Of a stretch of DNA of 64,000 bases, positions 2,179 through 48,700 are shown piece by piece. The notes beneath the pieces are model-generated. The model was not told the origin of the DNA. It worked only from the letters and a program-made list of their open reading frames with translations, and ran no database searches. The stretch is from Flavobacteriales bacterium (GTDB lineage Bacteria; Bacteroidota; Bacteroidia; UBA10329), in assembly GCA_021739695.1 (NCBI GenBank), contig JAIPBM010000006.1, positions 124,001 to 188,000 of the forward strand, in the 5' to 3' direction. Numbering within the stretch: the first letter of the stretch is position 1; each line of letters starts with the position of its first letter. The position numbers and the translations under genes were made by a program.

Positions 2179-2727
2179 ATGGTCGCTAAGCTTCCTGTAA
2201 AAAATAGAGAAAACACATATGTCCTGCTCGATGAAGATATTCTTCAAGATCTGAGGGACGATTCTGAGTTAAAGCGAAAGGCTTTCATCGAAAAACTTTC
2301 TCTCCACTCACGAAGTGGATACATATATTTCCAACGTTATCTGTCATACAAGCAGTTTCCGAAGTATGAGACCGTATACCTGCATAAGCTCATTGCGGAA
2401 CGCTACTTAGAAAAACCAATTACTGACAAGAAGCTCTTTGTTCGATTTATCGATGGTGACCCCCTCAATGTCCAGTTAGCTAATTTGGAGTGGGCGCAGA
2501 TGAAAACGATCAGAAGGGAAATGAAGGGAACCAGTTCTACGGGGTTCAGAGGCGTGACCAAAGACCGTGGTCGGTTCAGAGCCGTTATCTACGTGGGCGA
2601 CAAGAAGCATGATCTGGGATTCTTCAGCTATGCTGAGGATGCGGCAGAGGCCTACAATGACAAGTCCCGTGAGCTGTTCGGTGAAACCGGGAGTCTTAAC
2701 GTGATTGATGGAGGCAATAATCATTAG
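2179..2727 (+). CDS. AP2-domain protein with degenerate HNH-endonuclease-like half
   Basis: A 182-residue protein. The C-terminal part (about 121-170) is a clear AP2 DNA-binding domain: GFRGVTKDRGRFRAVI, then a DLGFFSYAEDAAEAYN stretch. The middle (about 70-107) follows the HNH_3 homing-endonuclease layout, with VYLHKLIAERYL followed by FIDGDPLNVQLANLEWA. The residue before IDG, usually His, is Phe here, and the metal-binding His is absent, so cleavage activity is doubtful. The family combines HNH and AP2 in phage and mobile-element endonucleases. This copy may instead be a DNA-binding remnant or regulator. It stands alone, 220 bp before a Xer-type recombinase. Confidence 0.8.
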   Translation: MVAKLPVKNRENTYVLLDEDILQDLRDDSELKRKAFIEKLSLHSRSGYIYFQRYLSYKQFPKYETVYLHKLIAERYLEKPITDKKLFVRFIDGDPLNVQLANLEWAQMKTIRREMKGTSSTGFRGVTKDRGRFRAVIYVGDKKHDLGFFSYAEDAAEAYNDKSRELFGETGSLNVIDGGNNH

Positions 2728-2949: not shown

Positions 2950-3897
2950 ATGGAATCATTCAAACACGTTTCTTTAGATTTTCTTCGGCATTGTATATAT
3001 GAGAAAGGGCTCAATGAAAAAACCCTCAAAGCCTACCAAACAGACATTAGGCAATTCAGAGAATTCTTGGCTCTTTCAGCGCCTGATATTCAGATTCTTG
3101 AAATTGACAAATCCATACTCCTTGCATACCTGAAGAATCTTCACGAGAAACAGTACAAGGTCAAATCTATTAAGCGAAAACTCGCTTGCATAAAAGCGGT
3201 CTTCAACTATTTTGAGTTTGAAAATGATGACTTCATCAACCCGTTCAGGAAAATCAGGATTAAACTTAAGGAACCATTTGTCGTTCCAACAGTGATGAAC
3301 TTTAACGAGGTCAGAGCCATTTTTCAAAACCTGTATTCCCTGAAACTGGAAATATCGCCTTCCGATGTTTACCAATACCGGGCTCTAGTACGGGATTTAG
3401 CTGTTCTTGAGTTGTTCTTTGCTACAGGGCTCCGAGTTTCTGAGTTGACGAATCTGAAATATGACAATATCAACTTGGATGAGGGTGTACTGAAGGTGCA
3501 TGGAAAAGGAGGAAAAGACCGTGTCATTCAGCTTTGCAATGCGGGCGTTATCAAATGCCTCAAGGAGTACGAATCGCTATTTATCAATGAGATGAAATCC
3601 ACAGGCTGGTTTTTCATCAACCGACTTAGTAAAAGGTTGTCTGAACAGTCAGCCAGAAATACTGTGAAAAAGTATGCTTCCGCTGGAAACACTTCCAAGT
3701 TGATTACACCCCATACTTACCGTCACACCTTTGCCACCATGCTGCTAGAAGAAGGAGTGGACATCAAATACATCCAGAAACTTCTTGGTCATAGTTCAAT
3801 TATGACCACTCAGATTTACACACATGTAACCTCTGTCAAACAGAGGGAGATTCTCGCGACCAAGCATCCCCGAAACCGAATGTCGATGATGGTCTAG
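2950..3897 (+). CDS. Tyrosine recombinase (XerC/XerD-like)
   Basis: A 315-residue site-specific recombinase. Residues 5-90 form the SAM-like core-binding domain. The catalytic domain carries the full set: Arg162 (GLRVSEL), Lys189 in the GKGGKDR turn, His255 and Arg258 (HTYRH), His281 (LGHSS) and the nucleophile Tyr290 (IYTHV). It lacks the N-terminal arm-binding domain of phage-type integrases, so it resembles Xer or small-element recombinases more than a tRNA integrase. It precedes a glycosyltransferase/phosphotransferase pair by 27 bp, and the three may share a transcript. It could be the recombinase of a small mobile unit. Confidence 0.92.
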   Translation: MESFKHVSLDFLRHCIYEKGLNEKTLKAYQTDIRQFREFLALSAPDIQILEIDKSILLAYLKNLHEKQYKVKSIKRKLACIKAVFNYFEFENDDFINPFRKIRIKLKEPFVVPTVMNFNEVRAIFQNLYSLKLEISPSDVYQYRALVRDLAVLELFFATGLRVSELTNLKYDNINLDEGVLKVHGKGGKDRVIQLCNAGVIKCLKEYESLFINEMKSTGWFFINRLSKRLSEQSARNTVKKYASAGNTSKLITPHTYRHTFATMLLEEGVDIKYIQKLLGHSSIMTTQIYTHVTSVKQREILATKHPRNRMSMMV

Positions 3898-3924
3898 TTA
3901 TCCTATGCAGGATAACTGTCAATT

Positions 3925-5043
3925 ATGAATGGTAAGGGCTTATGTTCTATAATAATACCGTACTACAATGAAACGCACCTGATAGAAGGATGTATTTACA
4001 GCATCCTACAGTCCGTCCAGACCAAACGGGTTGAAGTGATAGTGGTAGTATCTAATCCCTCTATTGTTGAACCAAATATCGATGATGAAAGAGTTTCCAT
4101 ACTAAGAGGAGAAAAAGCACTCAGTTATCCGGAAGCGATAAATTTTGGGGCTGAAAAATCCAATGGCAAATACCTGATCTTTTCTGATTCTGATGTTTTT
4201 GTCTCGAAATCATGGTTCACCTCATTAATTCACTTTTTTATCGCTAATGAATCGAAAGGTGTTGGAATTGCAAGTTCTAAGTTGCTCAATCCCGATAACG
4301 ATTCGATTTTGGATTTCGGAATAGCGTTTAGCAATTACAATTCACCTCATTTACATCGTAGTCGAAGAAAGGACACGCCCTTAACCAACGAGAATCAGGC
4401 GGTACAAGCGGCTTGTTCAGCGTCCATGATGACCACTAGGGAAAAGTTCCATGCCGTTAGTGGGCTAAACACCAGACTTCCATACTCATACTGTGACCTT
4501 GACCTTTGCTTAAGGTACAAATCAAGAAATTGGAGTACATGGGTAGTCGCTGATGCAATTGCTTATCATCAGGGAGATTCATCCAAAATAATTTCAGGGA
4601 CAAGTAAAAGCGATGTGAAATCAAGGTTTTGGGCTTTGAATGAAGGAAATATTAGCATCGACTTACCGGATTACTTCAAGAAACACTTCGAAATATTTAA
4701 TCGATCATTTAAACTCTCAGATTCTTACCTATTAGTAGATGTCTCGACCGTTGTGGACCGGGACTGGTATTACGACATTTTCGTGAGCGACCTAGGTATT
4801 CCAATCAATGATATTTACCAAAAAGGATTTTCAACAAGGGATGCTTCCCATATTCCCCTTTATGGCTTTTTGGGTTGGAACGTTCTGAAATTGAGGTTTC
4901 CATTGTTGTTTTTTACCGATGATTTTTCTGCCTTAGTGCCGAACAAACTTTGGTGGGAAATTCGTCCTAAGGGAAAAGACATGATAATTGATAGGAACGC
5001 CAATTTTTGTTCTTCACTAGACATTATCAGAAATGATTACTAA
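3925..5043 (+). CDS. Glycosyltransferase family 2
   Basis: A 372-residue protein with a GT-A fold at its N-terminus: CSIIIPYYNETHLIEGCI is the nucleotide-sugar-binding start, and DSD (residues 88-90, in FSDSDVFVS) is the DxD-type metal and sugar-nucleotide motif. Residues 135-200 contain the acceptor-side region with a SYCDLDLCLRY segment typical of these enzymes. The last 130 residues are not a family I can name. Its stop overlaps the start of the next gene by 11 bp (5033-5043), so the two are translationally coupled. It likely transfers a sugar to a glycan, protein or small molecule handled with the neighbouring kinase-like enzyme. Confidence 0.85.
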   Translation: MNGKGLCSIIIPYYNETHLIEGCIYSILQSVQTKRVEVIVVVSNPSIVEPNIDDERVSILRGEKALSYPEAINFGAEKSNGKYLIFSDSDVFVSKSWFTSLIHFFIANESKGVGIASSKLLNPDNDSILDFGIAFSNYNSPHLHRSRRKDTPLTNENQAVQAACSASMMTTREKFHAVSGLNTRLPYSYCDLDLCLRYKSRNWSTWVVADAIAYHQGDSSKIISGTSKSDVKSRFWALNEGNISIDLPDYFKKHFEIFNRSFKLSDSYLLVDVSTVVDRDWYYDIFVSDLGIPINDIYQKGFSTRDASHIPLYGFLGWNVLKLRFPLLFFTDDFSALVPNKLWWEIRPKGKDMIIDRNANFCSSLDIIRNDY

Positions 5044-5977
5044 TTGGGACGAACGCGTTATTCGGGAATGTGAGTTTTTCGAAGGTAAACGAATAGAAAT
5101 CTATCCTATTTATCTTGATGACCCAATACATAAGTGCTTCTTGGTCCGGTCTGATAAAAACTACAAAGTTCGATTATCAAAGAAGCAATACTCTCGGACC
5201 GTGCAGGCAGAATTAGATGCAATAAGACTGTTAGAGAAGCATGTTGAGTGGACACCTACTGTTTACTATTCTAACGTAAGCAATGCAAACAGAAAATTAC
5301 TAGTTTATGAGTTCATTGAAGGCACCAGTCTAGACAAGATTGAAATCTCTGGACAGCAATTCGATAGCGATTCGATATGCAAACAGTTATCTCGAATCCT
5401 TAACCAAATTCACCAGATACCAGGAGATTATTTCGGGGAATTTGATGGTACGCATTTTGCCTCTTGGGAGCATTATCTTGGGTTTAAATTCGAAAATCAC
5501 CTTAACAAATCGCTGGAATTAAACCTGTTGGATTTATACGACCTTAAACTGATTGAAAGTAGGATTTCTCGACATTGCGATTACTTCGCTCAAGTAACAC
5601 CCACCTTCTTGCATTTTGACGTTAAACCCGCGAATATTGTGCTATCTGACGGGGGAACCGTGACACTTATTGATTTCGAACTTTCGAGATTTGGAGACCC
5701 TGCCATGGAGTATTCCAAAATGTTGACTGACTTTGGAACCACGTCTAACGTTAAAGATAAAATACTTGGAAAGTTGGCTTCAGACTGGTTCAATAATCTA
5801 AGTAAGGAACCAATAAATTTTAGCGAAATAGTGATGCTTTATCAACTCTACAATCAATTAGCGTATTATACAACAAGCCTACTTAAACACCATACACCAC
5901 GTCCTAAACTCATACCATTAATTAAACAGCAAATACAAAGCATTAGGGATTCGGAAAACTTGTTCGTCCATCGGTAA
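5033..5977 (+). CDS. Aminoglycoside phosphotransferase / choline-kinase-like enzyme
   Basis: A 314-residue protein of the APH/choline kinase superfamily. The catalytic loop HFDVKPAN (His194, Asp196, Asn201) and the metal-binding DFE (Asp214) are intact, and the N-lobe contains YKVRLSKK. Such enzymes phosphorylate small hydroxylated substrates (sugars, aminoglycosides, choline); which one cannot be told here. It is coupled to the upstream GT2 gene by an 11-bp overlap, suggesting sugar or glycan phosphorylation rather than drug resistance. Its 3' end overlaps the convergent nuclease-NTPase gene by 35 bp, an unusual tail-to-tail overlap for genes in an accessory region. Confidence 0.82.
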   Translation: MITNWDERVIRECEFFEGKRIEIYPIYLDDPIHKCFLVRSDKNYKVRLSKKQYSRTVQAELDAIRLLEKHVEWTPTVYYSNVSNANRKLLVYEFIEGTSLDKIEISGQQFDSDSICKQLSRILNQIHQIPGDYFGEFDGTHFASWEHYLGFKFENHLNKSLELNLLDLYDLKLIESRISRHCDYFAQVTPTFLHFDVKPANIVLSDGGTVTLIDFELSRFGDPAMEYSKMLTDFGTTSNVKDKILGKLASDWFNNLSKEPINFSEIVMLYQLYNQLAYYTTSLLKHHTPRPKLIPLIKQQIQSIRDSENLFVHR

Positions 5978-8900
5978 TGTTGGTTTTAGGTTCTAAGGCG
6001 TATAAGAATTCAGCAAACCTTTCGTTATCCATATTCAGAATCCGTTTTACTTGACTTCGGACTTGTTTACTCCTAATGCAGGTTTGGAGTTTTTCATCCA
6101 CATCTTCCGATTTTAGTCGAGAGAACTGACGCAGCGAAATTGCCATATCCTCGAAAAAGTACAGGTATCTTTCCTCCATTCTATTATCAACTATGATGGT
6201 GCTTAACAGTTCTAAGGCGACCAAATATGACTCGTTCTTGACACTATGATCACTGGTCACTTTTCCTAGTAGGTAATGAGATTTCCAATACGACCTATTA
6301 GAGCTGTATCGTACACATAAATCAATGGCTATTTGCGCATAGTCTGCAGGTGATTCATTAGAATGGTTCTTTCCAAGATAAAAAACAAGACTCTTAACCA
6401 TTGTCAGTTTAATCTTGTTAAACACGTCCATTCTTATATCAGCCCATAGAATACCTTGTTCAACATAATTCAATGATTCATCATACTTACCACGGATAAG
6501 GGATGTAAGCGCGCGATGGAAGTAGGCAGAAACCCTCCTTCTTTCTACGCTTTCATCTTTGGCTGCCAGAAACATCTTCCATGCCTCATCCCAATTGGCG
6601 AGGAGCTCTGTTTGTTTTTTCCGATTCTTGTAATAGATGTAACCTATGTCAATGAAATTCTTAATCATCAAAGAATGATCCTGTAATTCCGAAGCAATCT
6701 TCAGTGACTCACTTCCAACTATTTCTGCTTGTTCTGGATAATTGGCTGACTTATATGTGACACAAAGCCGATTAAGTATGGCTGCCTTTAATCTCTTTCT
6801 TTGAGCGTCCTCTGAGAATTCAAATCTTTCAAGCCTGTCAAGCTCTGATAAAAGCAGTTCGTGAGCCGAAGAATCTAAGTGGAGAGACAGAAATGAGTTG
6901 GAATATCTTATAACAAATTGGAAGTAATCATCTCCTAAAGAATAGAATCTCTTCTGATCACTTGACATAATCTCATACACCTGCTTGTAAACAGTCACTG
7001 CCATAGAAAAAGTCCCATAATCCTTTATCTCATCGCAAATCCTTGTAAATGCACGAATGATAGAGATTTGACCAAACCAGAGTGATGAAAACCTCTTTAC
7101 TGCTTCAAAGAGTTTCAAGGAAAACGTGACCTTAAGTTCCCTTGCTACTTTTCCCTCAAATAAGCAGTCTAAGCCAAAACTTACAACATCACTATCTAAA
7201 GGATCGAGCGTATTTTTCGCAATGAACCATTGAGATGGATACAGCTCTTTCAAATTAAACTTATCAGTTATGATTAGTAGACGTGAACAAATTTCTTGAT
7301 CGACCCCACTCGAAAAGAATGTTTCATAGAAGAAAGTTTGAAGTTTTTGATGGCGGAAAACCACCTGATTTGTGGATGTGACATCTAAAAAGCCAAGTTG
7401 AACAAGTTCTCGAACCTTATTAAGATGTATCTCCAACTCATCCAACAATGAGAAGGATACTTGTTGAAGTAATGCCAAGTACTTAAGCAAAACTTCAAAC
7501 TTCCGCGACTCTACCTGTTCCTGTATAAAGCGCCAACGCAATAAAAACAGCCCCTCAATCCGTGGAGGAAGTTGTTTTAGGAGTGAGTGAAAACCATTTA
7601 TGTCAAATATGTAGAAGTAGTCTTTTCTTTTTCGAATAACCCCCAAGTCAAACATATGAAGCAGAGTTTGCTCAATGTATAACGGAGATTTATCCAGTCC
7701 TTCTAACGCGAACGCAAAGGTTTTCGGATATTTCTCCCTTAGGTCTGGAATACAATGCGACACAAATTTTTCAGCGTCAGCAGTAGAGAAATCCAAAACT
7801 TCGAAGTCAAACACGAAATTGGTTCGTGCAATTCCTTTTTCCCGGACCAGATTAAACAACGTGCCAATATGAGATTGTTCTATCACAAAATCTGTATTGA
7901 AGCTAAGTACTAAGCAAATGCCAGAGGTCTTGCCTACGGATTTTCTGATTAACTCGTTTAATATTGCCCCAATGTCCTCATTGAAAAATTGTACGTTATC
8001 TATTACAAAAGCAAATTTGGAATTACTGATTTTTTCCACCAAATCATCGATTACAATCGAAAGGTTGTCTGACAAAAAACTATCCTCGTAGAGAGCTCGG
8101 ATCAATTTGTTGGTGTGTCCAGTTAACTGCTTCTTCGAATTCGAAGTACCCGCAAGAATCTCTGTTTGCGGCAGTCCAACCACCTCAGAAATCCACTTTT
8201 TGAGAACCTGAAACCCTGATGATTCACTTGCTTGAAAATCACCATCAACACTAACAATTCGAAAATTATTGCTCAGCAGGACATCATTTGTCTCCTTCAG
8301 GAGCCTGGATTTTCCAGTACCGCTACGACCATAATAAGTAAAGATTCTGCCTTTATTTATTCCTACGGTTTCGTTTTGAATTATATCTAAAAACTCAAGT
8401 CGACCACGTCCTATTATTGGTGTTGAAATCACCCATGAGCAGTTGATGTTTCCAAGTGATAGTTCTACTTCAGTTCCATCCTCACAAATGGAATACACTT
8501 TGGGCAAAGGAATGGTCTTGTGGTACTGCTCAAGTTTGAATACAAATCGATGGAACTCTATGCTAGCTTTATCAATACGAATATCAACTTTCCAATGATC
8601 TCGCTTGAGTTGTTCGCTAAGACATGAGAAGTGTCTTTTAAACTCATTTGGTTTTAAGAATAGGATGGCAGCACGGTCCGCATCTGTTTTATTAGAGACG
8701 AAAACGTCAATGCAGAAAGTTTCGTTAACGTTGAGAGCCGCGTTTTTATTCTGTAGTTGAGTAACTATCGTTTTAGACGAGTAGTCATAAGAAACATCTC
8801 GTTGGAGGTTAATTCGATATTGTAATTCTTGTTTCGTTCCAAAGTTCCGACTGCGATTTTCTATGGAAATCCCCGGGAAATACTGCTTGAGAATTGAATC

Positions 8901-9314
8901 ATGTTTAAGAATTTCCTCCTCAAGGATTTCGTCTTCAATAAGCTGGAACTTAAGACCTGTTTTCGACTTAAACTGTGTAATGTAGTTTCTAGCGTTATCA
9001 TTCAACTTAGTTGGTGTAAAAAAGAAGACCGCTTTAACCTCCTTAATCACTGCCATAACTAAAGTCGGACTTAGCGTGTCAATGGAAATATTCGCTGATC
9101 GATTTTTACACTCTACCCAATATTCGTCTGTATAGAAAAACTCATCGGTTAATCCAATTTCAAAATCTCTCTTACCATCATGGGTTCTTCTCGTCCTCTT
9201 CCAATCTAGCTTAGGATGTTGTTTTGATAAGAGATCTTGGACGAGATCCTCAAACCGCTCTCCTTTATTTTCCGACATTAAAGGCTCCCAATCAGAATCC
9301 GTTAAGAACTTCAT
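5943..9314 (-). CDS. Mrr-like nuclease / AAA-STAND NTPase / TPR protein, candidate defence gene
   Basis: A 1123-residue protein with three parts. Residues 15-105 form a PD-(D/E)xK nuclease domain of Mrr type: Glu22 in GERFEDLVQDLL, Asp50 (KRDFEIG) and Glu68-x-Lys70 (WVECKNR). Residues 300-600 form an AAA_16/STAND-like ATPase: GRGRLEFLD at 302-310, Walker A GRSGTGKSR at 329-337 and Walker B FAFVIDN at 434-440. The remaining roughly 450 residues are helical with TPR-like repeats (for example about residues 870-1000). Nuclease-NTPase-repeat proteins are the plan of Avs/STAND antiphage sensors, where the repeats sense and the nuclease kills. It is shorter than typical Avs proteins. It is convergent with the phosphotransferase gene. 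Confidence 0.8.
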   Translation of the reverse strand: MKFLTDSDWEPLMSENKGERFEDLVQDLLSKQHPKLDWKRTRRTHDGKRDFEIGLTDEFFYTDEYWVECKNRSANISIDTLSPTLVMAVIKEVKAVFFFTPTKLNDNARNYITQFKSKTGLKFQLIEDEILEEEILKHDSILKQYFPGISIENRSRNFGTKQELQYRINLQRDVSYDYSSKTIVTQLQNKNAALNVNETFCIDVFVSNKTDADRAAILFLKPNEFKRHFSCLSEQLKRDHWKVDIRIDKASIEFHRFVFKLEQYHKTIPLPKVYSICEDGTEVELSLGNINCSWVISTPIIGRGRLEFLDIIQNETVGINKGRIFTYYGRSGTGKSRLLKETNDVLLSNNFRIVSVDGDFQASESSGFQVLKKWISEVVGLPQTEILAGTSNSKKQLTGHTNKLIRALYEDSFLSDNLSIVIDDLVEKISNSKFAFVIDNVQFFNEDIGAILNELIRKSVGKTSGICLVLSFNTDFVIEQSHIGTLFNLVREKGIARTNFVFDFEVLDFSTADAEKFVSHCIPDLREKYPKTFAFALEGLDKSPLYIEQTLLHMFDLGVIRKRKDYFYIFDINGFHSLLKQLPPRIEGLFLLRWRFIQEQVESRKFEVLLKYLALLQQVSFSLLDELEIHLNKVRELVQLGFLDVTSTNQVVFRHQKLQTFFYETFFSSGVDQEICSRLLIITDKFNLKELYPSQWFIAKNTLDPLDSDVVSFGLDCLFEGKVARELKVTFSLKLFEAVKRFSSLWFGQISIIRAFTRICDEIKDYGTFSMAVTVYKQVYEIMSSDQKRFYSLGDDYFQFVIRYSNSFLSLHLDSSAHELLLSELDRLERFEFSEDAQRKRLKAAILNRLCVTYKSANYPEQAEIVGSESLKIASELQDHSLMIKNFIDIGYIYYKNRKKQTELLANWDEAWKMFLAAKDESVERRRVSAYFHRALTSLIRGKYDESLNYVEQGILWADIRMDVFNKIKLTMVKSLVFYLGKNHSNESPADYAQIAIDLCVRYSSNRSYWKSHYLLGKVTSDHSVKNESYLVALELLSTIIVDNRMEERYLYFFEDMAISLRQFSRLKSEDVDEKLQTCIRSKQVRSQVKRILNMDNERFAEFLYALEPKTNITDGRTSFPNP

Positions 9315-9437
9315 TTACAAGGTAATTGACAGTTATCGTTTATTGGTTTTCCTTATTCAAAACTTGAAGTTTGACCTAAGCAAACACATTGGCAAGGTAC
9401 ACTTCCCTTAATTCATTTCCTATGCTACAATACTGGC

Positions 9438-9780: not shown

Positions 9781-9805
9781 AAAAACCGCCCAAACGGGCG
9801 TTTTT
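9781..9805. terminator. Bidirectional intrinsic terminator
   Basis: A CGCCC/GGGCG stem with an AAA loop, flanked by AAAAA on the left and TTTTT on the right, so it can end transcription from both sides. It lies between the small rightward gene and the leftward methyltransferase, whose stop codon begins the right edge. Confidence 0.8.
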
Positions 9806-10437
9806 CACTTCTTAGCATTTCTCATTACTTCTACACACAACTCCTTCGGAATCTTCGACCTTTCATAGTTATTCTTCAATCCCTGTGTTCCCCCGTGACT
9901 CCCCTTAGGAGCACTGTCGTGACACTTCGAGCGAGGCTTGCACATCGGTCTTGGTTTCCAATTCGGGTTGTTCGTCCAAATGTCGGTCGGTTTCATTCTG
10001 AAGTCTCCGTATTGGCAGTACGTGACCGTATGCCTGAACGGTAGGTTCTGCATGAATTTTTGATGCCTCAGTTTACCGCGTGGGTTTTCGATGTACCAGA
10101 TCAGGTTCGGGTTGAATTTCTGGTAATGGCGAATGAGTTTGAGCGTCTTTTTTACAAGCTTGATTCCAAGCAAAGCAGTTTCAGTTACAGGAATAGAGTT
10201 TTCTGCTTTTCCTTTCCAATGCTTCCACGAGCTTGCGACTGAGAACCCTGTACATGGTGGGCTTGCCCAGATCACATCAGGAATGAATGGGATGTCTTTA
10301 GGAGTTAGTTCTAATACGTCTTTGACGAGGTCAATCTTCTCGAACGGCTTTACATCCGTTGAGAACACCTCCATATTCAGTTTTTCTGCGGCCTTGGCGA
10401 TGCTTCGGCTGCCAGCAAACAGCTCTAATATTTTCAG
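9805..10437 (-). CDS. Phage-type DNA cytosine-5 methyltransferase, start region disrupted
   Basis: From the first in-frame ATG (10374) the protein lacks motif I, but the same frame continues upstream and encodes LELFAGSRSIA, the S-adenosylmethionine-binding motif. The frame therefore begins near 10437, where only a CTG codon is available (about 210 residues). Other motifs are present: SPPCTGFS with the catalytic Cys62 and ENPRG at 117-121. The enzyme would methylate cytosine C5 in DNA, as phage and mobile-element orphan methyltransferases do. A 10-bp direct duplication separates the natural ATG from the reading frame. It is either translated from CTG, frame-restored, or a broken gene. Confidence 0.72.
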   Translation of the reverse strand: MKILELFAGSRSIAKAAEKLNMEVFSTDVKPFEKIDLVKDVLELTPKDIPFIPDVIWASPPCTGFSVASSWKHWKGKAENSIPVTETALLGIKLVKKTLKLIRHYQKFNPNLIWYIENPRGKLRHQKFMQNLPFRHTVTYCQYGDFRMKPTDIWTNNPNWKPRPMCKPRSKCHDSAPKGSHGGTQGLKNNYERSKIPKELCVEVMRNAKK

Positions 10438-21317: not shown

Positions 21318-22739
21318 ATGAAAAAAGTATTGATTTCTTGGATGGCCAAGGAGAATGATTTCGATAAAGAGAGTGGAGCGGTCAGGTCTAATGGCCCCAC
21401 ATGTTCAATACATCAACACCATTATCAATATGACGAGCACATCCTGCTTACCTCGTCTAAAAGTTCGTCTGAAGATATTCGGTACCAGCATCTTGTAACC
21501 TACTTGAGGCGTTCTTTCGGCAATCAGATTGTTGAATGTGCCATGGGAATTAATGACGTGATAGACCTGAGTGAAATACTTGCGAAGGTTACAAGTCTTC
21601 TCTTGAAGTATCGCAATAGTGAGATTACCGTTTTCATATCTCCGGGCACTCCATCAATGCAAGTGGCCTGGTATCTCTCCCATTATAGTTTGGGACTTAA
21701 TATGAAACTCTTCCAAATGCGTAGACCTGAACATAGCGAAAACGCTATTCCTAAACAGATATGGGTTAAAATGGAGTTGTCGTCCTACATTTCCTCTGCT
21801 ATAATCAGACAAGATGAGTTGGACAAGAAATTCCCTTCCGCCCATATTATAACAGGGATCTTGAAGCCCATTTATGCCAAAGCTGAGCGAATAGCTTCCA
21901 CTGATCAGGTCCGAGTTCTGATACTAGGAGATACAGGAACAGGAAAAGAACAAGTCGCTCGGTTTATTCATGACAACTCACCAAGGAAGCAGAAGGCGTT
22001 CATAAAGGTGAATTGTTCAGCCATAGGTGATAATCTTTTGGAAAGCAGGCTGTTCGGTTACGTAAAGGGTGCCTTTACAGGTGCTGACAAGAATGAAGAT
22101 GGGATTTTTCATGCCTCGGATGGCGGAACAGTCTTCCTTGACGAGATTGGAGACATCAGTCCGTACATGCAACAATCTCTATTGCGATTCCTTCAAGAAG
22201 GAGAAATACAGCGGGTCGGTTCATCTAGACCCGAAAAAGTGAACGTCCGAGTATTGACTGCAACCAATCGTGACCTATACGCAAAGTCCAGCAATGGCAG
22301 CTTTCGTCAGGACCTGTATTACAGGTTGTCAGTTTGTGAGTTAATCATGCCATCATTGAGGTCGTATCCTCTGAGTGAAAAGGAGGAAATTTTCACCCAC
22401 ATATGGAGAAAGTCAGTTCAAATTCTAGGTAAACGTGCTCCAAAACTGCCAAGCCCATTGAAAAGAACATTAATAGAACACACTTACCCTGGGAATTTCA
22501 GAGAGTTAGAAAATACTCTTTTAGGGATAATTGCAGAAAGCTCTGACATTGTGCGAAAAGAAAATATTCCTAGAAGAATTCTTCAGCCAATTGGCACCGA
22601 CTCAGTCAAACTCGAGGAGGTGGTAAAATCACATATAAAAATGGTTTATTTAGAATACGGTGAAAATGCGGTTCGAACGGCACGTGCTTTAGGTGTCAGT
22701 GTTAACACTGTAAAGAAAAAATTAGGCGAGGCTCGGTAA
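21318..22739 (+). CDS. RtcR-like sigma54-dependent activator with CARF-like sensor domain
   Basis: A 473-residue regulator. Residues 1-185 match the RtcR N-terminal (CARF-type) layout, with NGPTCSIHQHHYQYDEHILL early and VFISPGTPSMQVAWYLSHY later. Residues 190-420 are a sigma54-interacting AAA+ domain: GDTGTGKE (204-211) is Walker A, GAFTGA (251-256) is the sigma54-contact loop and is intact, and GGTVFLDEIGD is Walker B. The C-terminus (about 452-472) is a Fis-type helix-turn-helix. It should switch on a sigma54 promoter on binding a nucleotide or RNA-derived ligand. It converges with the four-gene operon, its stop 2 bp from that operon's end. Confidence 0.85.
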   Translation: MKKVLISWMAKENDFDKESGAVRSNGPTCSIHQHHYQYDEHILLTSSKSSSEDIRYQHLVTYLRRSFGNQIVECAMGINDVIDLSEILAKVTSLLLKYRNSEITVFISPGTPSMQVAWYLSHYSLGLNMKLFQMRRPEHSENAIPKQIWVKMELSSYISSAIIRQDELDKKFPSAHIITGILKPIYAKAERIASTDQVRVLILGDTGTGKEQVARFIHDNSPRKQKAFIKVNCSAIGDNLLESRLFGYVKGAFTGADKNEDGIFHASDGGTVFLDEIGDISPYMQQSLLRFLQEGEIQRVGSSRPEKVNVRVLTATNRDLYAKSSNGSFRQDLYYRLSVCELIMPSLRSYPLSEKEEIFTHIWRKSVQILGKRAPKLPSPLKRTLIEHTYPGNFRELENTLLGIIAESSDIVRKENIPRRILQPIGTDSVKLEEVVKSHIKMVYLEYGENAVRTARALGVSVNTVKKKLGEAR

Positions 22740-22741
22740 AT

Positions 22742-24319
22742 CTATACGGCTATCTCCTTCAAAGCATCAACGACAAACTTTAAATCAATGGCCTCACTAG
22801 GTAAATGCTCCTGATGCGCTTTTGTCCTATTTAAAAGAAAATCGGCATAGCGACCCTCAGCATTCTTAAGTTGGAACCACCTGTCATCTTCAACATTTGT
22901 AACTTTGTCCGATAGTTTTATCCACACTTCCTCGGGAACGGTAGGTCCGTTGTTAATCGCTTTCGAGTTAATCGTTTTGTCGTTTAAAATCATAACACCA
23001 AACCCATTATTTCCTCCTGAAGTATAATCTGCATTAATCAAAGCCTTAACAGCAGTAGCTACATTAGGATAATGAGGATTTGTCACTTCCACATTGTACA
23101 CTACCAAAGGCGAGTCGTAATTCAACGTACGATTTCTGGTGTCTGATTCCCGTTGTTTAGGAACGAAGTTCTTTTCAGTAATCTCAACCTTTTCAACCCA
23201 CCCGAAACGCGCTTGGTGTTTTCCCTTTTCCACAGTTACGGACTTAATGTCATCGGTGATTTCACGGAATGTGACCTGATTTTGAAACAGAACTTGCCAG
23301 AGATGCATCATAACAAAGTTAGCCACCGGCACTCCCCAGCATTTGTACAATGAATAGCACACATAGTGTACTATTAGATTTTGTGGCTTTATCTTATTTC
23401 CTTCATCGTCCTTCCAAATCGCATTATCGATTGTTTTATGATTCCCAACCTTGTAATTGTGAAAAAACATTCCTGCTACGGATTTAAAGGCCTTTGATTC
23501 CCCCTGAAGAAGAGTTTTCTTTACAAAATAATCCAGACTACCCTTCGCACTTCGTTCCATGTCCGTCTTTTGCCTGTCGTTCAATTCCCCGAGGGGAAGT
23601 AGTTTATTTTCGTAGCAGAAAATAACGGCAATCACGCAAGCGTCAACAATTGCCCTTTTCCAATTTTCCGTTAAATACTTTGTCGTAGGCTCAGCCGACA
23701 AATCATCTCCTCCTAAGAAGAATGGAATGTCATGCATGCTTGAGATAATATTCTTAATGTTGTAGGTATGGGCACCTGCATGTGAGTCAGAATAGTTTAC
23801 CTCATCCAGAACAGTTTGAATTGAGCTTGGAAGCTCTCCAGAATAGAATGCTTCCGCTACTAGTTGACTACATGACGGCTTCGTTCTGGTTCCATCCGCG
23901 TGATGCTCATCATAGAACGCCAACGCTTTTGCACCACCAGACTCATCTGCATGAATACCAAATACAACTCCCGAAGACCATGACATTCTAGCGTACGAAT
24001 CGTCCTCAGCAGACATAAGTACATGATCGGAAACCTCTATGTCTTTCAAATGGGGCGGGAGGATTGCTCGAAAGAATAATTCAGCAAAATATTCATCCAA
24101 ATGCGCATTCTTGTGAATAATGGTTCGCTTAAGTTTTGTCGTTTTCTGCGTATCAAACCTAGTCAGCTTTGTCTTATCATGTTTTTCAAGCACTTTGTAC
24201 AAATACTGAGCGCTTGCATATGTGATAGCATTAAGAATTCCGCCTTTTTCAGAAATAAGATCCTCACATAACAGAATTCTATTAGCATTGATTATCGATG
24301 TCCTTTCTTGCTGATTCAT
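22742..24319 (-). CDS. MYG1/DHH-like phosphoesterase candidate, putative effector
   Basis: A 525-residue protein. Its N-terminal third has features of the MYG1-type branch of DHH-like phosphoesterases: IIHKNAHLDEYFAELFFRA (His73, Asp75), a GVVFGIHADESGG stretch, and FYDEHHADG (residues 135-143) aligned with the DHH motif, followed by SCSQLVAEAF. The C-terminus (NNGFGVMILN, VPEEVWIKLSD) could be the matching substrate domain. If so it would cleave phosphodiester bonds in nucleic acid or nucleotides. The assignment is from motif reading only. It ends an operon with PP2C, kinase and vWA genes, overlapping the PP2C gene by 4 bp. Confidence 0.55.
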   Translation of the reverse strand: MNQQERTSIINANRILLCEDLISEKGGILNAITYASAQYLYKVLEKHDKTKLTRFDTQKTTKLKRTIIHKNAHLDEYFAELFFRAILPPHLKDIEVSDHVLMSAEDDSYARMSWSSGVVFGIHADESGGAKALAFYDEHHADGTRTKPSCSQLVAEAFYSGELPSSIQTVLDEVNYSDSHAGAHTYNIKNIISSMHDIPFFLGGDDLSAEPTTKYLTENWKRAIVDACVIAVIFCYENKLLPLGELNDRQKTDMERSAKGSLDYFVKKTLLQGESKAFKSVAGMFFHNYKVGNHKTIDNAIWKDDEGNKIKPQNLIVHYVCYSLYKCWGVPVANFVMMHLWQVLFQNQVTFREITDDIKSVTVEKGKHQARFGWVEKVEITEKNFVPKQRESDTRNRTLNYDSPLVVYNVEVTNPHYPNVATAVKALINADYTSGGNNGFGVMILNDKTINSKAINNGPTVPEEVWIKLSDKVTNVEDDRWFQLKNAEGRYADFLLNRTKAHQEHLPSEAIDLKFVVDALKEIAV

Positions 24320-25188
24320 GTTTTCTTATCAGTATTAGTTCTAATAACAGAAATAAAAGTTGCATCATCGGTAGGCCAATCACGCCCTTCCTTCTTCTTC
24401 AGCACCTCCTTAACAACCCTTTTTTGAAATTCTCTCCTTCTATCTTGAAACCCATTCTTTAATCCTACTATTTTCGAGTCAAAAAAGAAAGAGCCGAACT
24501 CTGGAGTTTCCAATACATCCGTGTCTAGAAGGCCATCCGTGGCAATAAGTAGACTATCCAGATTCTTTGTATTCCCACTACCTACTATTTTCATTGATAC
24601 CAAAGCTTCCTCATCTCCACTATTGAATTCAACGAAATTGTTGGATAAGTATTTCCCAGAAGAACTAGTTACCGTCATCCGATTCCCGTTGATAAAGACA
24701 TCACCATCACCACAATTAAGAATGACGTAATATTTCTCTGTGATAACAAAAACCGTCAGAGTGGATGACATCAGATTATTCAAAAACTGTTTCCTTTCAA
24801 ACTTCCAAGGGTGTACTGCGTTGATGGTTCGAGCTAACCGATAATTTATAAGTCTCTCAAACTCTAATGGAAAACCAGCCAGCGAAACTTTATTCTTCAA
24901 AACAATCCTGCGTGCAATTCGGACACCAAGAAAACTAAGGAAATAGGCACCTACCTGATTGAACGAGTGACCATTGAGATTTGTCCCACTCGTACAACCG
25001 TCAGCGATAGTTCCTACTAGAAGTCTTTTTCCAATATAGATGCTTGCAGAATCCTGATTTCCGATACTACTTTCTTTATGCATCAATCCTTCCTGGCTCA
25101 TCCCAAATACCGAAAACGACAATCCAGTGCTATTGTCCGAATCCGTAAGAAAATCTACGTTGTACTCAAAAGGCCCCATCATATTCAA
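24316..25188 (-). CDS. PP2C-type protein phosphatase
   Basis: A 290-residue protein of the PPM/PP2C fold. It shows NQDSASI (Asp46), IADGCTSGTN (Asp63-Gly64), the TDGLLDTD strand and TDDATFISV near the end, the metal-binding aspartates expected of the family. It would remove phosphates from Ser/Thr, most simply reversing the adjacent kinase-like protein. There is no signal peptide or membrane segment. It overlaps the kinase gene and the MYG1-like gene by 4 bp each (ATGA-type junctions), so the products are made together. Confidence 0.82.
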   Translation of the reverse strand: MNMMGPFEYNVDFLTDSDNSTGLSFSVFGMSQEGLMHKESSIGNQDSASIYIGKRLLVGTIADGCTSGTNLNGHSFNQVGAYFLSFLGVRIARRIVLKNKVSLAGFPLEFERLINYRLARTINAVHPWKFERKQFLNNLMSSTLTVFVITEKYYVILNCGDGDVFINGNRMTVTSSSGKYLSNNFVEFNSGDEEALVSMKIVGSGNTKNLDSLLIATDGLLDTDVLETPEFGSFFFDSKIVGLKNGFQDRRREFQKRVVKEVLKKKEGRDWPTDDATFISVIRTNTDKKT

Positions 25189-26249
25189 GGTATCTTAAGT
25201 CCGTACTGATCCATGAATAACTTTACTTCTTCTGGGTCGTTCTTGTCCTGACCTAAAAGCTCGAATTCATTTTCCGATGACTTTATCTTCCTTCTTTGAA
25301 TATAAACGGTGCTTCTTGGACCATGGTAATAATATTTGCGTTCACCTTTTACAAAAACATCTTCGAAGTACTTGAAAATGTCAGGGCAATTCTCCGATAA
25401 GTACTGAAGCCTGTCAGACACAGCATCGAATAAAGGATTGCGTTCAATGTTCAAACCTGAGTTCTCAATTTTAGATTGGTTTTTGAGAACGAAGTCAAGC
25501 CAACTAACCCCTAAGTTCTTTTTGTAATCGGTATCTGTCGGGTCTGTTGTCTGATAAAAATGCGGCTTTACCCCCACTAGTAGCTCAAAAGCAACCACGG
25601 CCATAGCATAGATATCACTATCAGTATTATACAGGAAAAACCTTGCTCGACCTTTGCCATCAGTCTTGACGGTTGGATCAACATATTCTTTGCGTCTTGT
25701 AGTACTGAAAAATCCACCAACCTGTACAGAGTCAAAATCCACAAGTACCGGAGCCAAGGTTTGTTCATTTATCAATATGTTTTCTGGGTTAATATCCCCT
25801 ACGACAACCCCGACCTTATGAAAAACCTCCAAATAGTGATTTAGCGCATGCACGATGGAAAGCAGGTTTTCATCAACCAAGTTCGTTCTTCCATAAGAAA
25901 GCCCATTGCTGGAATATTTGATGTCATTAAGATCTAAATGGTTGGGATAATAACGCATCATAAACCCACAGAAGTGTTTAGTTCCAACTTCGTAGACAGG
26001 AGCTTCAGGAAAAGCTACGAAATTTTCAATTCCCAATAGGAACTTTTGATTTCTGTTAATCAGCGTAATAACCTTTCGTTCATTAAATGCTGTTCTCTTG
26101 TCTGGATTATAAACCTTAACGCACTTGACAACACCCTCAACATTAGTTGTCCATAATTCCCCTTCACCACCGAACTTTCCAGTGCTAGTTAATTGTCTTT
26201 TTTCTTTGTTGATTATTACCTCCATGGATTTACTATGTATTCTTTGCAT
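25185..26249 (-). CDS. Ser/Thr protein-kinase-like protein of TerY-P type
   Basis: A 354-residue protein. The glycine-rich loop GKFGGEGELW lies at 24-33 with a Lys about 12 residues on (VVKCVKV). The catalytic loop reads VVGDINPENIL (Asp152, Asn157) instead of HRD, and the metal site reads LVDFDSVQ (Asp171) instead of DFG. The GDxNPxN and DFDSxQ forms are what I recall for kinases of the TerY-P triad. It likely phosphorylates a partner, perhaps the vWA protein. The ATG at 26249 overlaps the vWA gene by 17 bp; an ATG at 26225 would leave a short gap and is equally possible. Confidence 0.82.
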   Translation of the reverse strand: MQRIHSKSMEVIINKEKRQLTSTGKFGGEGELWTTNVEGVVKCVKVYNPDKRTAFNERKVITLINRNQKFLLGIENFVAFPEAPVYEVGTKHFCGFMMRYYPNHLDLNDIKYSSNGLSYGRTNLVDENLLSIVHALNHYLEVFHKVGVVVGDINPENILINEQTLAPVLVDFDSVQVGGFFSTTRRKEYVDPTVKTDGKGRARFFLYNTDSDIYAMAVVAFELLVGVKPHFYQTTDPTDTDYKKNLGVSWLDFVLKNQSKIENSGLNIERNPLFDAVSDRLQYLSENCPDIFKYFEDVFVKGERKYYYHGPRSTVYIQRRKIKSSENEFELLGQDKNDPEEVKLFMDQYGLKIP

Positions 26250-27492
26250 TCGTAGAGAAGAGTTGAAAGGCCCTTCTGATTGATTCAGCGTCAGTATTGT
26301 CTATCGAAATTGACTCGTTGAAATTCAGTTCTTCCCGTATTGATTCCAATTTGTCGTTTGAAAATTCACTTCCTGTAAGACCTATCAATACGCTTGAAAC
26401 GAGAAACGATTTTTTATTATCTCTGCTCCTTAACTCTTCAAGCCTTTTTCGGATTTGATTGACTTTAGCAATTTTCTTACTCGCATAAGCCTCGGGGCTT
26501 TTGGAAACTTCTATACCGTCTGTAATCGTATCCTCTCCATCAGTTATGACACCGATAGAAACCTTATCGATTCGTTTATGGCTTTCTTCAACCTCCCGAA
26601 GCTCATTGTACACTACTCTCAGGGATTCATCAATCGTATCATAAAGAGCGGTCATTCCACCTGGTCGGTATCCCTCGCCACCTAGAGTGACAACCTTGTC
26701 AGACCCTTCCATTGCCTCCAAATACTCGGGCGGATTGATAAGGTGCTTACGACTATCAAATGTGTATTGATATATCTTCAAGTAGCCATCTTTGCATATT
26801 GCGCTACCTCGAAGTGCTTGCAATGCTTTCTTATGGGCTTCACCAATTGCCAACCTCAATCGTGCCACAGCATTCTTATAATCCTGTGAATCCCATTTAT
26901 CCCAATTTGATTGATCATCGAGAAACGGCCAGATCATAGACTGGGAACTATCAATCAAGAGAATCACGCAATATTCCTCTCGCTCTATGTATCTACGTTC
27001 TCGTCTTTCAGGTACTACTTTAAAAAGCGGTTGTAAAGCCTCGCGTTCTGAATTTGACAGGTTCGTTATAGAAACCAAAGAGTACCTCCGATAATTCGTC
27101 AAGTACCATTCCATAACTATTTGAAGCCCCAGCATTAATTGCTGAAACTCTCGTTCGATAAGCTCAAAATCATCCTTATAAGTATTCCAATTCCTTTTTT
27201 CAGTAATATCTCCAATGTTTTTTCTCACCTTTTGTAAGATTCCACTTCTAAAAGTGTATTTATTCGTTTGCTTGTTTTTTGAAGAAAAGAATTCCTTCTT
27301 ATCAACAGTATACAAGGGTGACCTAAAGTCAGAGGAAGATTTATCAATATGAAACTCATGTATACAGATGCTTTGCATCAAACTGATAACGGCGTCCCTA
27401 GCGTCTCGAAGGGCATCGGTAGGTTCTCTACTGACTCCAATAGCTTTACAGTATTCCCTCACTGCTTTCAGTTCATATGAATTTAACTCCAT
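26233..27492 (-). CDS. vWA-domain protein (TerY-like), first gene of the operon
   Basis: A 419-residue protein. The first 160 residues are helical and unassigned. From about 172 comes a vWA domain: CVILLIDSSQSM with the MIDAS DSSQS at 181-185, a GEGYRPGGMTALYDTI stretch bearing the MIDAS threonine, and VSIGVITDGEDT. vWA domains bind partners through a metal ion. Together with a kinase and PP2C it forms the triad seen beside tellurite-resistance and other stress and conflict genes. It starts the leftward operon; the 151 bp upstream contain no convincing GG-N10-GC sigma54 promoter that I could see. Confidence 0.83.
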   Translation of the reverse strand: MELNSYELKAVREYCKAIGVSREPTDALRDARDAVISLMQSICIHEFHIDKSSSDFRSPLYTVDKKEFFSSKNKQTNKYTFRSGILQKVRKNIGDITEKRNWNTYKDDFELIEREFQQLMLGLQIVMEWYLTNYRRYSLVSITNLSNSEREALQPLFKVVPERRERRYIEREEYCVILLIDSSQSMIWPFLDDQSNWDKWDSQDYKNAVARLRLAIGEAHKKALQALRGSAICKDGYLKIYQYTFDSRKHLINPPEYLEAMEGSDKVVTLGGEGYRPGGMTALYDTIDESLRVVYNELREVEESHKRIDKVSIGVITDGEDTITDGIEVSKSPEAYASKKIAKVNQIRKRLEELRSRDNKKSFLVSSVLIGLTGSEFSNDKLESIREELNFNESISIDNTDAESIRRAFQLFSTNAKNT

Positions 27493-45727: not shown

Positions 45728-48700
45728 TTACTTGACCACCACAAGCCTTTGCTGAAGGACCTTATCATTATCGAGTGCAATTCTCAATATGTAAACTCCT
45801 TCGGCTTCATTGTGAAGATCGATCATCGTTGTTCCAGCGAATGAAGTCAGATTGATACTTCCAAGCACTTGTTTTCCCATAAGATCGAACACAGCTAATT
45901 GCATGTCCGACTGACGATCGAGCGAATAGCTGATGGTGAAAACACCTGTAGACGGATTTGGATAGATGTCCATACTTAAACCAAACTCCTCAATTCCTGT
46001 GGCGCAAGGCGAATTCTGATCAAAGGTGAATTCTTCGATAAAACTAGTCACGGTACATCCATAGGAATCCACAATTGTTACCGTGTAATTTCCACTAGCC
46101 GTAGGACAGTAAGTCACGTTTGTTGCATTCGCAATTGGAGCTCCGTTCAACGACCATTGATAAGAAGAAGCAGTGTCATTTGAACAGCTCAGCAATCCAT
46201 CAACCGTTGATATGATATTCGGAGTAACCTGATCAAAGAATGAAACAAGCACCGTATCCGTGTTACTTACGCAACCGTCCTGGTTAATTACGGATAGCCA
46301 ATAACTGGCCTCATTTGTCACCGTTATGCTAGCAACACTTGCACCTGTGCTCCAGTTATATTGAGAATATCCAGAACCTGCAGTCAACACCACTGATTCT
46401 CCTTGACAAATCTGTACAGGTCCGCTTGGTTGAATCTGAATCTCGAATGGAGCATCTTGTCCAATGCTCACATTTCCGACAACGCTACATCCGTTAACAT
46501 CAGAAACGGTGACCGAGAAGTTTCCAGCAGGAAGAGCATTAGGATTGAATCCTCCCCAGTTTTCAGTGTATGGTCCAGTTCCACCTGTAACAGTTACTGT
46601 TGCCGTGCCATCATTACCGCTATTGCAAGTAACATCTGTTCCTACAACTTCAACTTCCATTTCAACCACATCCACGAAGAATGTACAGCTAGCTGTATTT
46701 CCATCCTCATCTTCCGCTATAATGGTTGTGTTCAACTGTCCGGTAATTACAGTGCCAACAGCTGGAGATTGCGTCAAAGTCACCGTTCCGCAGGCATCTG
46801 AAGCAGTTGCTAATGTTGTGTAATCGAGCAACGCGAAGTTGCAATTAGCACTCAACTGAAGTACCTGATCAGATGGACATATTACCGTTGGAGGCAATAC
46901 ATCATCGACCGTTAAATTGAACGCACAATTGTCACTATTGCCATTATCATCCTCAACTGTAATCTGAATACCATACGTTCCAGTTCCAAAAATTGTGCTT
47001 CCTGCTGCAGGAATCTGCTGATATGATAATGTTATATCGCAATTATCTTCCGCACTCATCAAGCTTGTATAATTTGGAACGGTGAATGAACACGAGCTAT
47101 TCAGCGTGGCAAGCTGATCAGAAGGACATTGTACGATTACTGGATCAGTGTTGTCCTCAGGAATCACACCAAAGGTACAGGTCGCTTCATTTCCATTATC
47201 ATCCTCCACTGTCATGGTAACTGCAGTTCCTGTCAAAATAAATGTTCCCTGAGGAGGAAACTGACTCACCGCCATTCCTGATGCACAGTTGTCTGAAGCA
47301 GTTACAAGTGTAGAGTAGTCTTCAACCACAAATTGGCAGTTTGCATCCAACGAAACGAACTGAGCGTTCGGACAAACAATTGTAGGTGTAACATCATCAG
47401 ATGGGACAACATTGAATGTACAAGAAACCGAATTTCCGTTCAAATCTGATACCGTTATCAAAATCTGTGTAGTTGAACTGATGGCCGTTCCTTCTATTGG
47501 AGACTGGGTAATGCTGGTAGCATTACAATTGTCGCTAGCAACTACTTCTGGCTTGTAATCTTCCAACAGGAACTCACAATTCTCATTCAAACTAACGAAG
47601 ACCGTTGAAGGACAGGTCACTGTCGGATCTGAATTATCTGAAGGATTGACCACGAATGAGCAGGCGTCTGAATTTCCATTGCCGTCATCAACGGTCAAGG
47701 TTACCGTTACAGTACCAGCAATTGATGTTCCCGCTAGGATATCCTGAGTGACAACCAAGTTTAAACCACAGTTATCGTCTACAACCGCCATTCCAGTATA
47801 ATCTGGCAGAATAAACGCACAATTCGCATTGAACGACACGTCTTGATCTTGAGGACATGTTATGGTAGGGTCTGTTTCGTCAGCTGGAATAACTGAGAAC
47901 GAACAACTTGCTGTGTTTCCATTTCCGTCTTGCGCTGTAAGCGTGACAGAACTAGTTGAACTAATGAGTGTGCCAGCAGATGGACTTTGCGTAATTACAA
48001 AGGTGTTGGAACAGTTGTCAGTAGCTGTTACAAACCCGATGTAATCAGAAATTTCGAACTGGCAGTCTGAGTTGAGAGACACATTCTGATCAGGCGCACA
48101 AACAACTGTTGGCGGTGTATTGTCTTCAGGAGTAACGTTGAACGAACAAGTTGAGCTATTGCCGTTGCCGTCATTGGCAGTTAGTGTAACCGCAGTTAAT
48201 GAAGTGACACTCGTTCCAGCCAATGGGCTTTGACTTACCAAAATGACAGTAGAACAATTATCGGAAGCAACTCCAGCAACTGTAAAATCAGCCAAGCTGT
48301 ATATACAATTCTGGTCGAGGTCAACAGCTAGATCTGATGGACACACGATCACTGGGTCAACATTATCCTCTGGTTGAACTACGAAAGCACAACTTGAAGT
48401 ATTGTTGTTGTCATCTGAAGCTGTTAAGGTCACAATCGTATTTGAACTTTGGGTTGAACCAACTGCTGGCGACTGAGACACAATAATCAGCGAACTACAG
48501 TTGTCATCAGTGACAGCCAATCCTGTAAAGTCTGATAACCCAAATTCACAGTTTCCATCCAGCTGAGCTACTTGAGCAGATGGACATGTGATACTTGGAG
48601 CCAAATTATCGTAAGGAGCTACGCTGAACGTGCATGAAGTAGAATTTCCGTTATCATCCTCAGCTGTCAATGTGATGACGCTAGTTCCTCCGATCATGCT

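What the first reader, a model, noticed from the sequence alone, without database searches (positions are those of the whole stretch)
5943..9314. Compact nuclease-NTPase-TPR protein, possible Avs-like antiphage sensor
An Mrr-type nuclease (Asp50, Glu68, Lys70), a GRxxEL-type STAND ATPase and TPR-like repeats in one 1123-residue chain match the effector-switch-sensor design of STAND defence proteins, but in a smaller format. It lies among recombinases in accessory DNA.
Basis: partly seen in the sequence, partly recalled or inferred. Interest (0 to 1): 0.6.

Follow-up and report, generated by a model that had tools for sequence, protein, structure and literature searches.

The report
Invertible recombinase-driven defence gene cassette
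The predicted phage-sensing nuclease is real, but it is one half of a 5.4-kb DNA segment that a neighbouring recombinase can probably flip, and the same flip design, with other gene pairs including a known anti-phage system, occurs in many unrelated bacteria; this suggests that cells swap or re-dose immune genes by inverting DNA.

Summary
In detail: window 5943-9314 (-) encodes an 1123-aa protein with an Mrr-type nuclease domain, a STAND-like NTPase and TPR-type helical repeats. Fold search gives a STAND-TPR protein first and Avs4 third. It matches no Avs profile, so it is STAND-type but not an Avs member.

The larger finding is what surrounds it. The gene is convergent cargo of a segment bounded by an inverted, dif-like 17-nt site (GATAA-N7-TTAT) directly downstream of a Xer-like recombinase (2950-3897). 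This recombinase family has the site at its 3' end in 58 of 83 loci. Where at least 1 kb of downstream sequence exists, 32 of 35 loci carry an inverted copy with an identical spacer, none a direct copy. Three gene pairs occur in opposite orientations in different genomes, and assemblies break at the sites. Cargo is exchangeable and includes Thoeris in Akkermansia. In the window the cassette lies in an ICE slot that sister elements fill with Qat plus type III RM, PDC-M12 or an Upx-like gene.

Best reading: a phase-variable, modular conflict/defence cassette. Inversion is well supported by comparison, though not shown in this genome; anti-phage function and the effect of flipping on expression are inferred.

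The parts
2950..3897 (+). Xer-like tyrosine recombinase (315 aa), proposed invertase
   Evidence: Phage_integrase PF00589 139 bits; XerC/XerD models 228-235 bits, below their cut-offs; R/K/H-x-x-R/H/Y motifs present; 45-60% identical relatives head the same cassette
3911..3927 (+). left recombination site, GATAACTGTCAATTATG; last 3 nt are the glycosyltransferase start codon
   Evidence: inverted repeat with 9321-9337; motif test
3925..5043 (+). GT2 glycosyltransferase, cargo of the left end
   Evidence: PF00535 62.9 bits; homologues in the same position in L021, L046, L065, L076, L063
5033..5977 (+). APH/kinase-fold protein, second gene of the left cargo operon
   Evidence: PF01636 68.6 bits; weak PD-T4-6/mad6 kinase-motif similarity
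5943..9314 (-). Mrr-STAND-TPR protein (1123 aa), convergent cargo of the right end; 35-nt tail overlap with the kinase gene
8877..9272 (-). Mrr-type nuclease domain, about residues 15-146 (D50, E68, K70)
   Evidence: PF04471 above cut-off; alignment
7515..8417 (-). STAND-like NTPase region, about residues 300-600
   Evidence: Walker A 329-336, FAFVIDN 434-440; fold matches
6000..7247 (-). helical, TPR-like repeats, about residues 690-1105
   Evidence: AlphaFold2 model; LGN-type TPR fold matches
9321..9337 (-). right recombination site, inverted copy GATAACTGTCAATTACC
9338..9437 (-). outer flank in which most Bacteroidota relatives have an inward promoter; weak candidate only in the window (AAGTTTTG, 28 nt before the core)
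9805..10374 (-). ICE anchor gene; sequence to its left is variable defence-type cargo in sister elements (context, not part of the cassette)

Best explanation
The Mrr-STAND-TPR gene is one of two convergent cargoes of a recombinase-controlled invertible cassette that sits in the cargo slot of an integrative conjugative element. The Xer-like recombinase (2950-3897) recombines two inverted dif-like sites (3911-3927 and 9321-9337) and flips the 5.4-kb segment between them. Flipping exchanges which cargo, glycosyltransferase + kinase or Mrr-STAND-TPR, is coupled to the recombinase gene and which sits at the outer end, where most Bacteroidota relatives have a separate inward promoter. Because the two reading frames overlap tail-to-tail, transcription from the two ends should interfere, so a flip should re-set the ratio of the two products (reciprocal dosage) rather than act as a plain on/off switch. 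The Mrr-STAND-TPR protein itself most likely works as a STAND immune sensor: the repeats bind a phage or stress cue, the NTPase oligomerises, the Mrr domains cut DNA. Shown from sequence: architecture, inverted sites, conserved cassette design, opposite orientations of the same pair in different genomes, assembly breaks at the sites, defence-slot context. Inferred: flipping in this particular genome, effect on expression, ligand, DNA cutting, anti-phage protection.
For: Site test that selects by motif only: core within -25..+180 nt of the recombinase stop in 58 of 83 loci (2.2% in random stretches); 32 of 35 loci with downstream sequence have an inverted copy with an identical 7-nt spacer, 0 a direct copy, 0 with another locus's spacer. 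Same gene pair in opposite orientation: L062/L080, L074/L081, L089/L123. Assembly evidence: 25 of 83 contigs end within 300 nt downstream of the recombinase against 5 upstream, 10 within 3 nt of the core end; G475 contig C50 is exactly the 3131-nt segment between two sites and C5 starts at the same site; in L065, itself a GT/Mrr-STAND cassette, the contig end joins the STAND side to the recombinase 3' end over 99 nt. GT/Mrr-STAND cassette in seven other loci, L124 and L076 atypical. Outer -7 promoter element at a fixed distance in 14 of 22 Bacteroidota loci (mean 3.0 in other windows), 1 of 22 on the left. Convergent ends overlap in 18 of 28. Defence: Thoeris (ThsA 7e-165, ThsB 2.5e-13) in the same design in Akkermansia; STAND-TPR and TIR-like cargo elsewhere; ICE slot with Qat, type III RM, PDC-M12, Upx-like. 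Fold matches 6mfv, Avs4, Avs5, plant NLRs.
Against: No reads or RNA data for this genome: only one orientation is seen here, and all eight GT/Mrr-STAND cassettes have the glycosyltransferase next to the recombinase. The window's right-hand promoter is weak and its two sites are identical over only 15 nt. Thoeris needs both its proteins (established knowledge), which argues against strictly exclusive expression. Several cargo pairs (methyltransferase or spermidine synthase with a protein of unknown family) have no known defence role. No protection or nuclease activity has been tested.
Confidence: 0.65

Rival explanations
1. Orientation-neutral two-gene system: both cargoes are always expressed, one from each flank, and work together (GT/kinase makes or hides a signal or self-mark, Mrr-STAND-TPR is the effector). 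The inverted sites mainly serve acquisition or exchange of modules; flipping has little effect on expression.
For: Outer inward promoter in 14 of 22 Bacteroidota loci; the Akkermansia cassette is Thoeris, whose two proteins are both required (established knowledge); cargo differs between collinear Akkermansia loci; recombinase relatedness does not follow cargo type, e.g. the L063 recombinase is 78% identical to that of L080 with different cargo.
Against: The Akkermansia exchange boundary lies about 140 nt beyond the right site and the spacers differ, so it was not a simple site-to-site exchange. Tail-to-tail overlap predicts interference. Assembly breaks suggest that flipping is frequent, which wants a reason.
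Confidence: 0.3
2. Strict either/or switch: only the gene next to the recombinase is expressed, the other is silent storage, so cells alternate between a surface-glycan change (GT) and an intracellular nuclease sensor, as phage Mu and Moraxella alternate tail fibres or pilins.
For: Start codons of both cargo genes lie at or near the inner edge of the sites and the recombinase stop codon lies at the left site; the same pair occurs in both orientations.
Against: Inward promoter element on the outer flank in most Bacteroidota loci; Thoeris as cargo.
Confidence: 0.2
3. The Mrr-STAND-TPR gene is an ordinary stand-alone defence gene; the neighbouring recombinase and the inverted repeat are remnants of mobile DNA without a regulatory role.
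For: Recombinases are common in such islands; the window's arms are identical over only 15 nt.
Against: Recombinase, sites, glycosyltransferase and STAND gene recur together in eight loci including a Firmicute; identical spacers in 32 of 35 loci.
Confidence: 0.08
4. The STAND-TPR protein is a regulator of the glycan genes rather than an immune effector.
For: STAND-TPR proteins include transcription regulators (MalT type, established knowledge), and the usual partner here is a glycosyltransferase.
Against: N-terminal Mrr nuclease domain with conserved D-ExK and no DNA-binding output domain found; defence slot of the ICE.
Confidence: 0.07

Closest known systems
Avs (AVAST) STAND antiphage sensors, especially Avs4
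   Same: N-terminal nuclease, central STAND NTPase, C-terminal helical-repeat sensor; Avs4-portal complex (8dgf) is the third PDB fold match, Avs5 (9jap) is also listed
   Different: No Avs profile match; 1123 aa against 1534 aa for the Avs4 chain; lies in an invertible cassette with a glycosyltransferase
STAND protein with TPR sensor, PDB 6mfv
   Same: Best fold match over NTPase and repeat regions (E 1.3e-10)
   Different: 641-residue chain, 13% identity; invertible locus not known for it
Invertible segments with two convergent gene sets: phage Mu G, phage P1 C, Moraxella pilin (Piv)
   Same: Recombinase beside an inverted-repeat-bounded segment with convergent gene sets (established knowledge; Moraxella is listed in PMC11868660 and P1 in PMC12529663)
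   Different: There the alternatives are related surface or tail proteins; here the two cargoes are unrelated, cargo types are exchangeable, and the sites are dif-like
Gut invertons and hsdS shufflons
   Same: Tyrosine recombinases and short inverted repeats; surface or defence genes affected (PMC11892184)
   Different: Those flip promoters or parts of specificity genes; here whole gene pairs are flipped between fixed flanks
PinQ inversion in E. coli (PMC12529663)
   Same: DNA inversion by a recombinase that affects phage infection; [quoted passage not shown]
   Different: Serine recombinase, cryptic-prophage segment, block of phage adsorption
Thoeris
   Same: ThsA and ThsB are the cargo of the same cassette design in Akkermansia locus L066
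   Different: Not present in the window; genes normally lie in one direction (established knowledge)

Membership tests
Avs (AVAST) | sequence match to Avs profiles | tested here: not met
   PADLOC scans of the protein and of seven relatives gave no Avs hit
Avs (AVAST) | effector (such as a nuclease) - STAND NTPase - helical-repeat sensor in one chain | tested here: met
   Mrr_cat, Walker A/B, helical repeats
Avs (AVAST) | recognition of phage terminase or portal by the C-terminal repeats | not testable with these tools
   needs co-expression with phage proteins
STAND NTPases | P-loop NTPase with Walker A and B followed by superstructure-forming repeats | tested here: met
   Invariant G329/G332/G334/K335/D439 in 8 relatives; fold matches 6mfv, SAMD9, Avs4, NLRs; sequence profiles only below cut-off
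Mrr/REase-like nuclease | D ... E-x-K catalytic core in an Mrr_cat domain | tested here: met
   PF04471 above cut-off; D50, E68, K70 conserved except in the N-terminally truncated L076
Site-specific invertible (phase-variable) element | recombinase gene next to a segment bounded by inverted sites with identical core | tested here: met
Site-specific invertible (phase-variable) element | both orientations occur | tested here: inconclusive
   met for the cassette family; not shown for the window itself, for which no reads were available
Site-specific invertible (phase-variable) element | orientation changes expression | not testable with these tools
   needs RNA data; promoter statistics only
XerC/XerD housekeeping recombinases | equivalog score | tested here: not met
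   234.7 bits against cut-off 329.6 for XerD, 227.8 against 335.15 for XerC
Thoeris (for the window) | ThsA and ThsB | tested here: not met
   seen only in L066; window proteins gave no Ths hit

The most novel reading that the evidence does not exclude
A previously unrecognised class of modular genetic element: a Xer-like recombinase plus a two-site slot that holds exchangeable, convergent two-gene conflict modules (GT/Mrr-STAND-TPR, ATP-grasp/STAND-TPR, SHMT-like/STAND-TPR, Thoeris A/B, TIR-like/GT and others), flips them at dif-like sites and so makes immunity phase-variable in Bacteroidota, Firmicutes, Akkermansia and other bacteria.
Probability: 0.55. Interest if true: 0.88.

Novelty: new variant of a known kind. 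Interest (0 to 1): 0.8.

Why it matters
Recombinases beside defence genes are usually written off as markers of mobile DNA; PMC12529663 says their function in phage defence is unknown and reports one case. Here a recombinase family is tied by its own recombination sites to pairs of genes that include STAND sensors and a recognised Thoeris system, with evidence that the segments flip in natural populations and that their cargo is exchanged. If true, costly or suicidal immune genes are bet-hedged by DNA inversion. The idea is testable by simple PCR and reporter assays, and the 17-nt site plus recombinase is a search key for new two-gene defence systems.

Tried and rejected
Close relatives by sequence alone: none in 394 other genomes of the phylum at E <= 1e-10, nor in plasmids, phages, IMG/VR or a single-query GTDB scan; one 25% identical relative turned up at lower stringency and led to the cassette. 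Housekeeping function: rejected, present in 1 of 9 genomes of the genus. Avs membership: rejected. A single-sequence AlphaFold model was useless (pLDDT 36). My first idea, a strict either/or switch, was weakened by the outer promoter element and by Thoeris as cargo. The first spacer test (29 of 29 identical) was partly circular, because those loci had been chosen for having inverted repeats; it was replaced, which picks sites by motif only. A first attempt at that test failed through a wrong spacer length. A sigma-70 promoter test in seven non-Bacteroidota loci was negative. A pure site-to-site cassette exchange in Akkermansia does not fit the breakpoints. Two papers on gene-altering inversions (Milman 2023, Chanin 2024) were not held, so they may contain examples of this design.
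Full report
WHAT WAS CHECKED. The ORF at 5943-9314 (-) is open over 1123 aa. Pfam finds Mrr_cat at residues 15-116 above its cut-off, and AAA_22/ATPase_2/AAA_16 below cut-off at 322-474. D50, E68, K70, Walker A GRSGTGKS (329-336) and FAFVIDN (434-440) are present.

HOW COMMON. At E <= 1e-10 no relative was found in 394 other genomes of the phylum, nor in the other eight genomes of the genus, plasmids, phages or IMG/VR. A looser search gave one full-length relative at 25% identity (L002/L021, genome G458).

THE NEIGHBOURS GIVE THE CLUE. In L021 the relative overlaps tail-to-tail with a glycosyltransferase similar to window 3925-5043 (28%), and beyond it lies a recombinase 52% identical to window 2950-3897. 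Searching with the recombinase brought further loci. One, L037, has recombinase, glycosyltransferases and a convergent Mrr-STAND-TPR protein of 1056 aa that is only weakly similar to the window protein.

INVERTED SITES. In window, L021 and L037 the segment from just after the recombinase stop to just before the STAND start codon is bounded by inverted repeats. A systematic scan found this layout in 29 non-redundant loci. The core is 17 nt, GATAA-N7-TTAT-C/G, which resembles the ATAA...TTAT centre of dif sites (established knowledge) and suits a Xer-like enzyme. A test that picks sites by motif only: 58 of 83 loci have the core at the recombinase 3' end (2.2% expected in random stretches); of 35 with at least 1 kb downstream, 32 have an inverted copy with an identical spacer, none a direct copy, and the spacers of other loci never match.

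EVIDENCE THAT SEGMENTS FLIP. (a) Three homologous gene pairs sit in opposite orientations in different genomes: L062/L080, L074/L081, L089/L123. (b) 25 of 83 contigs end within 300 nt downstream of the recombinase against 5 upstream; 10 end within 3 nt of the core. Inverted repeats this short should not break an assembly unless both orientations are present (inference). (c) Contig C50 of G475 is exactly one segment of 3131 nt with a site at each end, and C5 starts at the same site. (d) In L065, itself a GT/Mrr-STAND cassette, the contig runs from the STAND side through the site into 67 nt of the recombinase 3' end, a 99-nt overlap that reads as the flipped junction. For the window itself there is no such evidence, because reads were not available.

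ANATOMY AND EXPRESSION. Start codons of both inner genes lie at or near the inner edge of the sites; in the window the last three nucleotides of the left core are the glycosyltransferase ATG. In most loci the left gene follows the recombinase stop within some 30 nt. On the right, outside the segment, 14 of 22 Bacteroidota loci have a -7 element (TAnnTTTG, at least 5 of 6) 14-22 nt before the core, against a mean of 3.0 in other windows, 1 on the left flank and 3 in the outward direction. The window's own right promoter is weak. Convergent reading frames overlap in 18 of 28 loci. I therefore favour a reciprocal-dosage switch over a strict on/off switch; this step is inference.

CARGO. GT (with kinase or other genes)/Mrr-STAND-TPR in eight loci, of which L076 lacks the nuclease N-terminus and L124 has an extra gene at the right end; ATP-grasp/AAA protein, TPR in L083 (L074, L081, L083); SHMT-like/AAA or TPR protein (L089, L123); AAA-TPR in L110; TIR-like/GT + deacetylase (L130); Thoeris ThsB/ThsA in Akkermansia L066 (ThsA 7e-165); methyltransferase or spermidine synthase with proteins without a Pfam hit (L062, L080, L084, L100). 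Akkermansia-type loci L066 and L089 are collinear at 79-88% DNA identity with recombinases 87% identical, but the segment between is Thoeris in one and SHMT/STAND in the other. Recombinase relatedness does not follow cargo. The slot is thus exchangeable.

DEFENCE CONTEXT OF THE WINDOW. The cassette lies beside a conserved ICE gene (9805-10374). In sister elements the same side of that gene holds Qat plus type III RM (G399), PDC-M12 (G396) or an Upx-like gene (same genome, contig C6 left of the window), whereas in the copy on C10 no defence system was recognised by eye (PADLOC). This supports, but does not prove, a defence role.

STRUCTURE AND FAMILY. The alignment-based model (pLDDT 64.5) matches STAND-TPR protein 6mfv first, SAMD9 second, Avs4 third, then among others plant NLRs and Avs5. 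No PADLOC Avs profile matches. It works like a STAND immune sensor; it is not filed as Avs.

LIMITS. The recombinase loci are the 80 best of 508 found, plus those; promoter statistics rest on 22 loci; literature was searched only in open-access full text, where nothing of this design was found, and two relevant papers were not held.

Noticed in passing
L066:9662-13290 (Akkermansia, NZ_FXYA01000214.1): A Thoeris system (ThsB-like TIR and ThsA, PADLOC 7e-165) arranged as a convergent pair between inverted dif-like sites beside a recombinase; a genome in which flipping could be tested directly.
   Followed up: partly
L148:3776-13523 (genome G399): QatABCD and a type III RM system beside the same ICE anchor gene as in the window.
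   Followed up: yes
L151:2394-6197 (same contig as the window, to its left): 1267-aa Upx-like protein beside a second copy of the anchor gene, suggesting neighbouring or tandem ICE remnants.
   Followed up: partly
window 21318-27492: RtcR-like sigma-54 activator next to a cluster that looks like kinase, PP2C-type, von Willebrand-type and a 525-aa protein on the ICE; could be another conflict or stress module. No PADLOC hit for the two proteins tested.
   Followed up: partly
L106, sites near -4, +1715 and about +5800 from the recombinase end: A locus with three copies of the site; its outer part is homologous to the cargo of L040, so segments may be arranged in tandem.
   Followed up: no
L046:1993-6135: A Cas9 gene lies upstream of a GT/Mrr-STAND cassette.
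   Followed up: no
L021:53-9303: eCIS-type components (Pvc16_N, eCIS_core) and several glycosyltransferases near the G458 cassette.
   Followed up: no
window 2179-2727: HNH-like/AP2-like gene just left of the cassette, possibly a homing-type endonuclease.
   Followed up: no
window 45728-57079: 3783-aa predicted secreted protein made of many similar repeats (HYR-like by eye).
   Followed up: no
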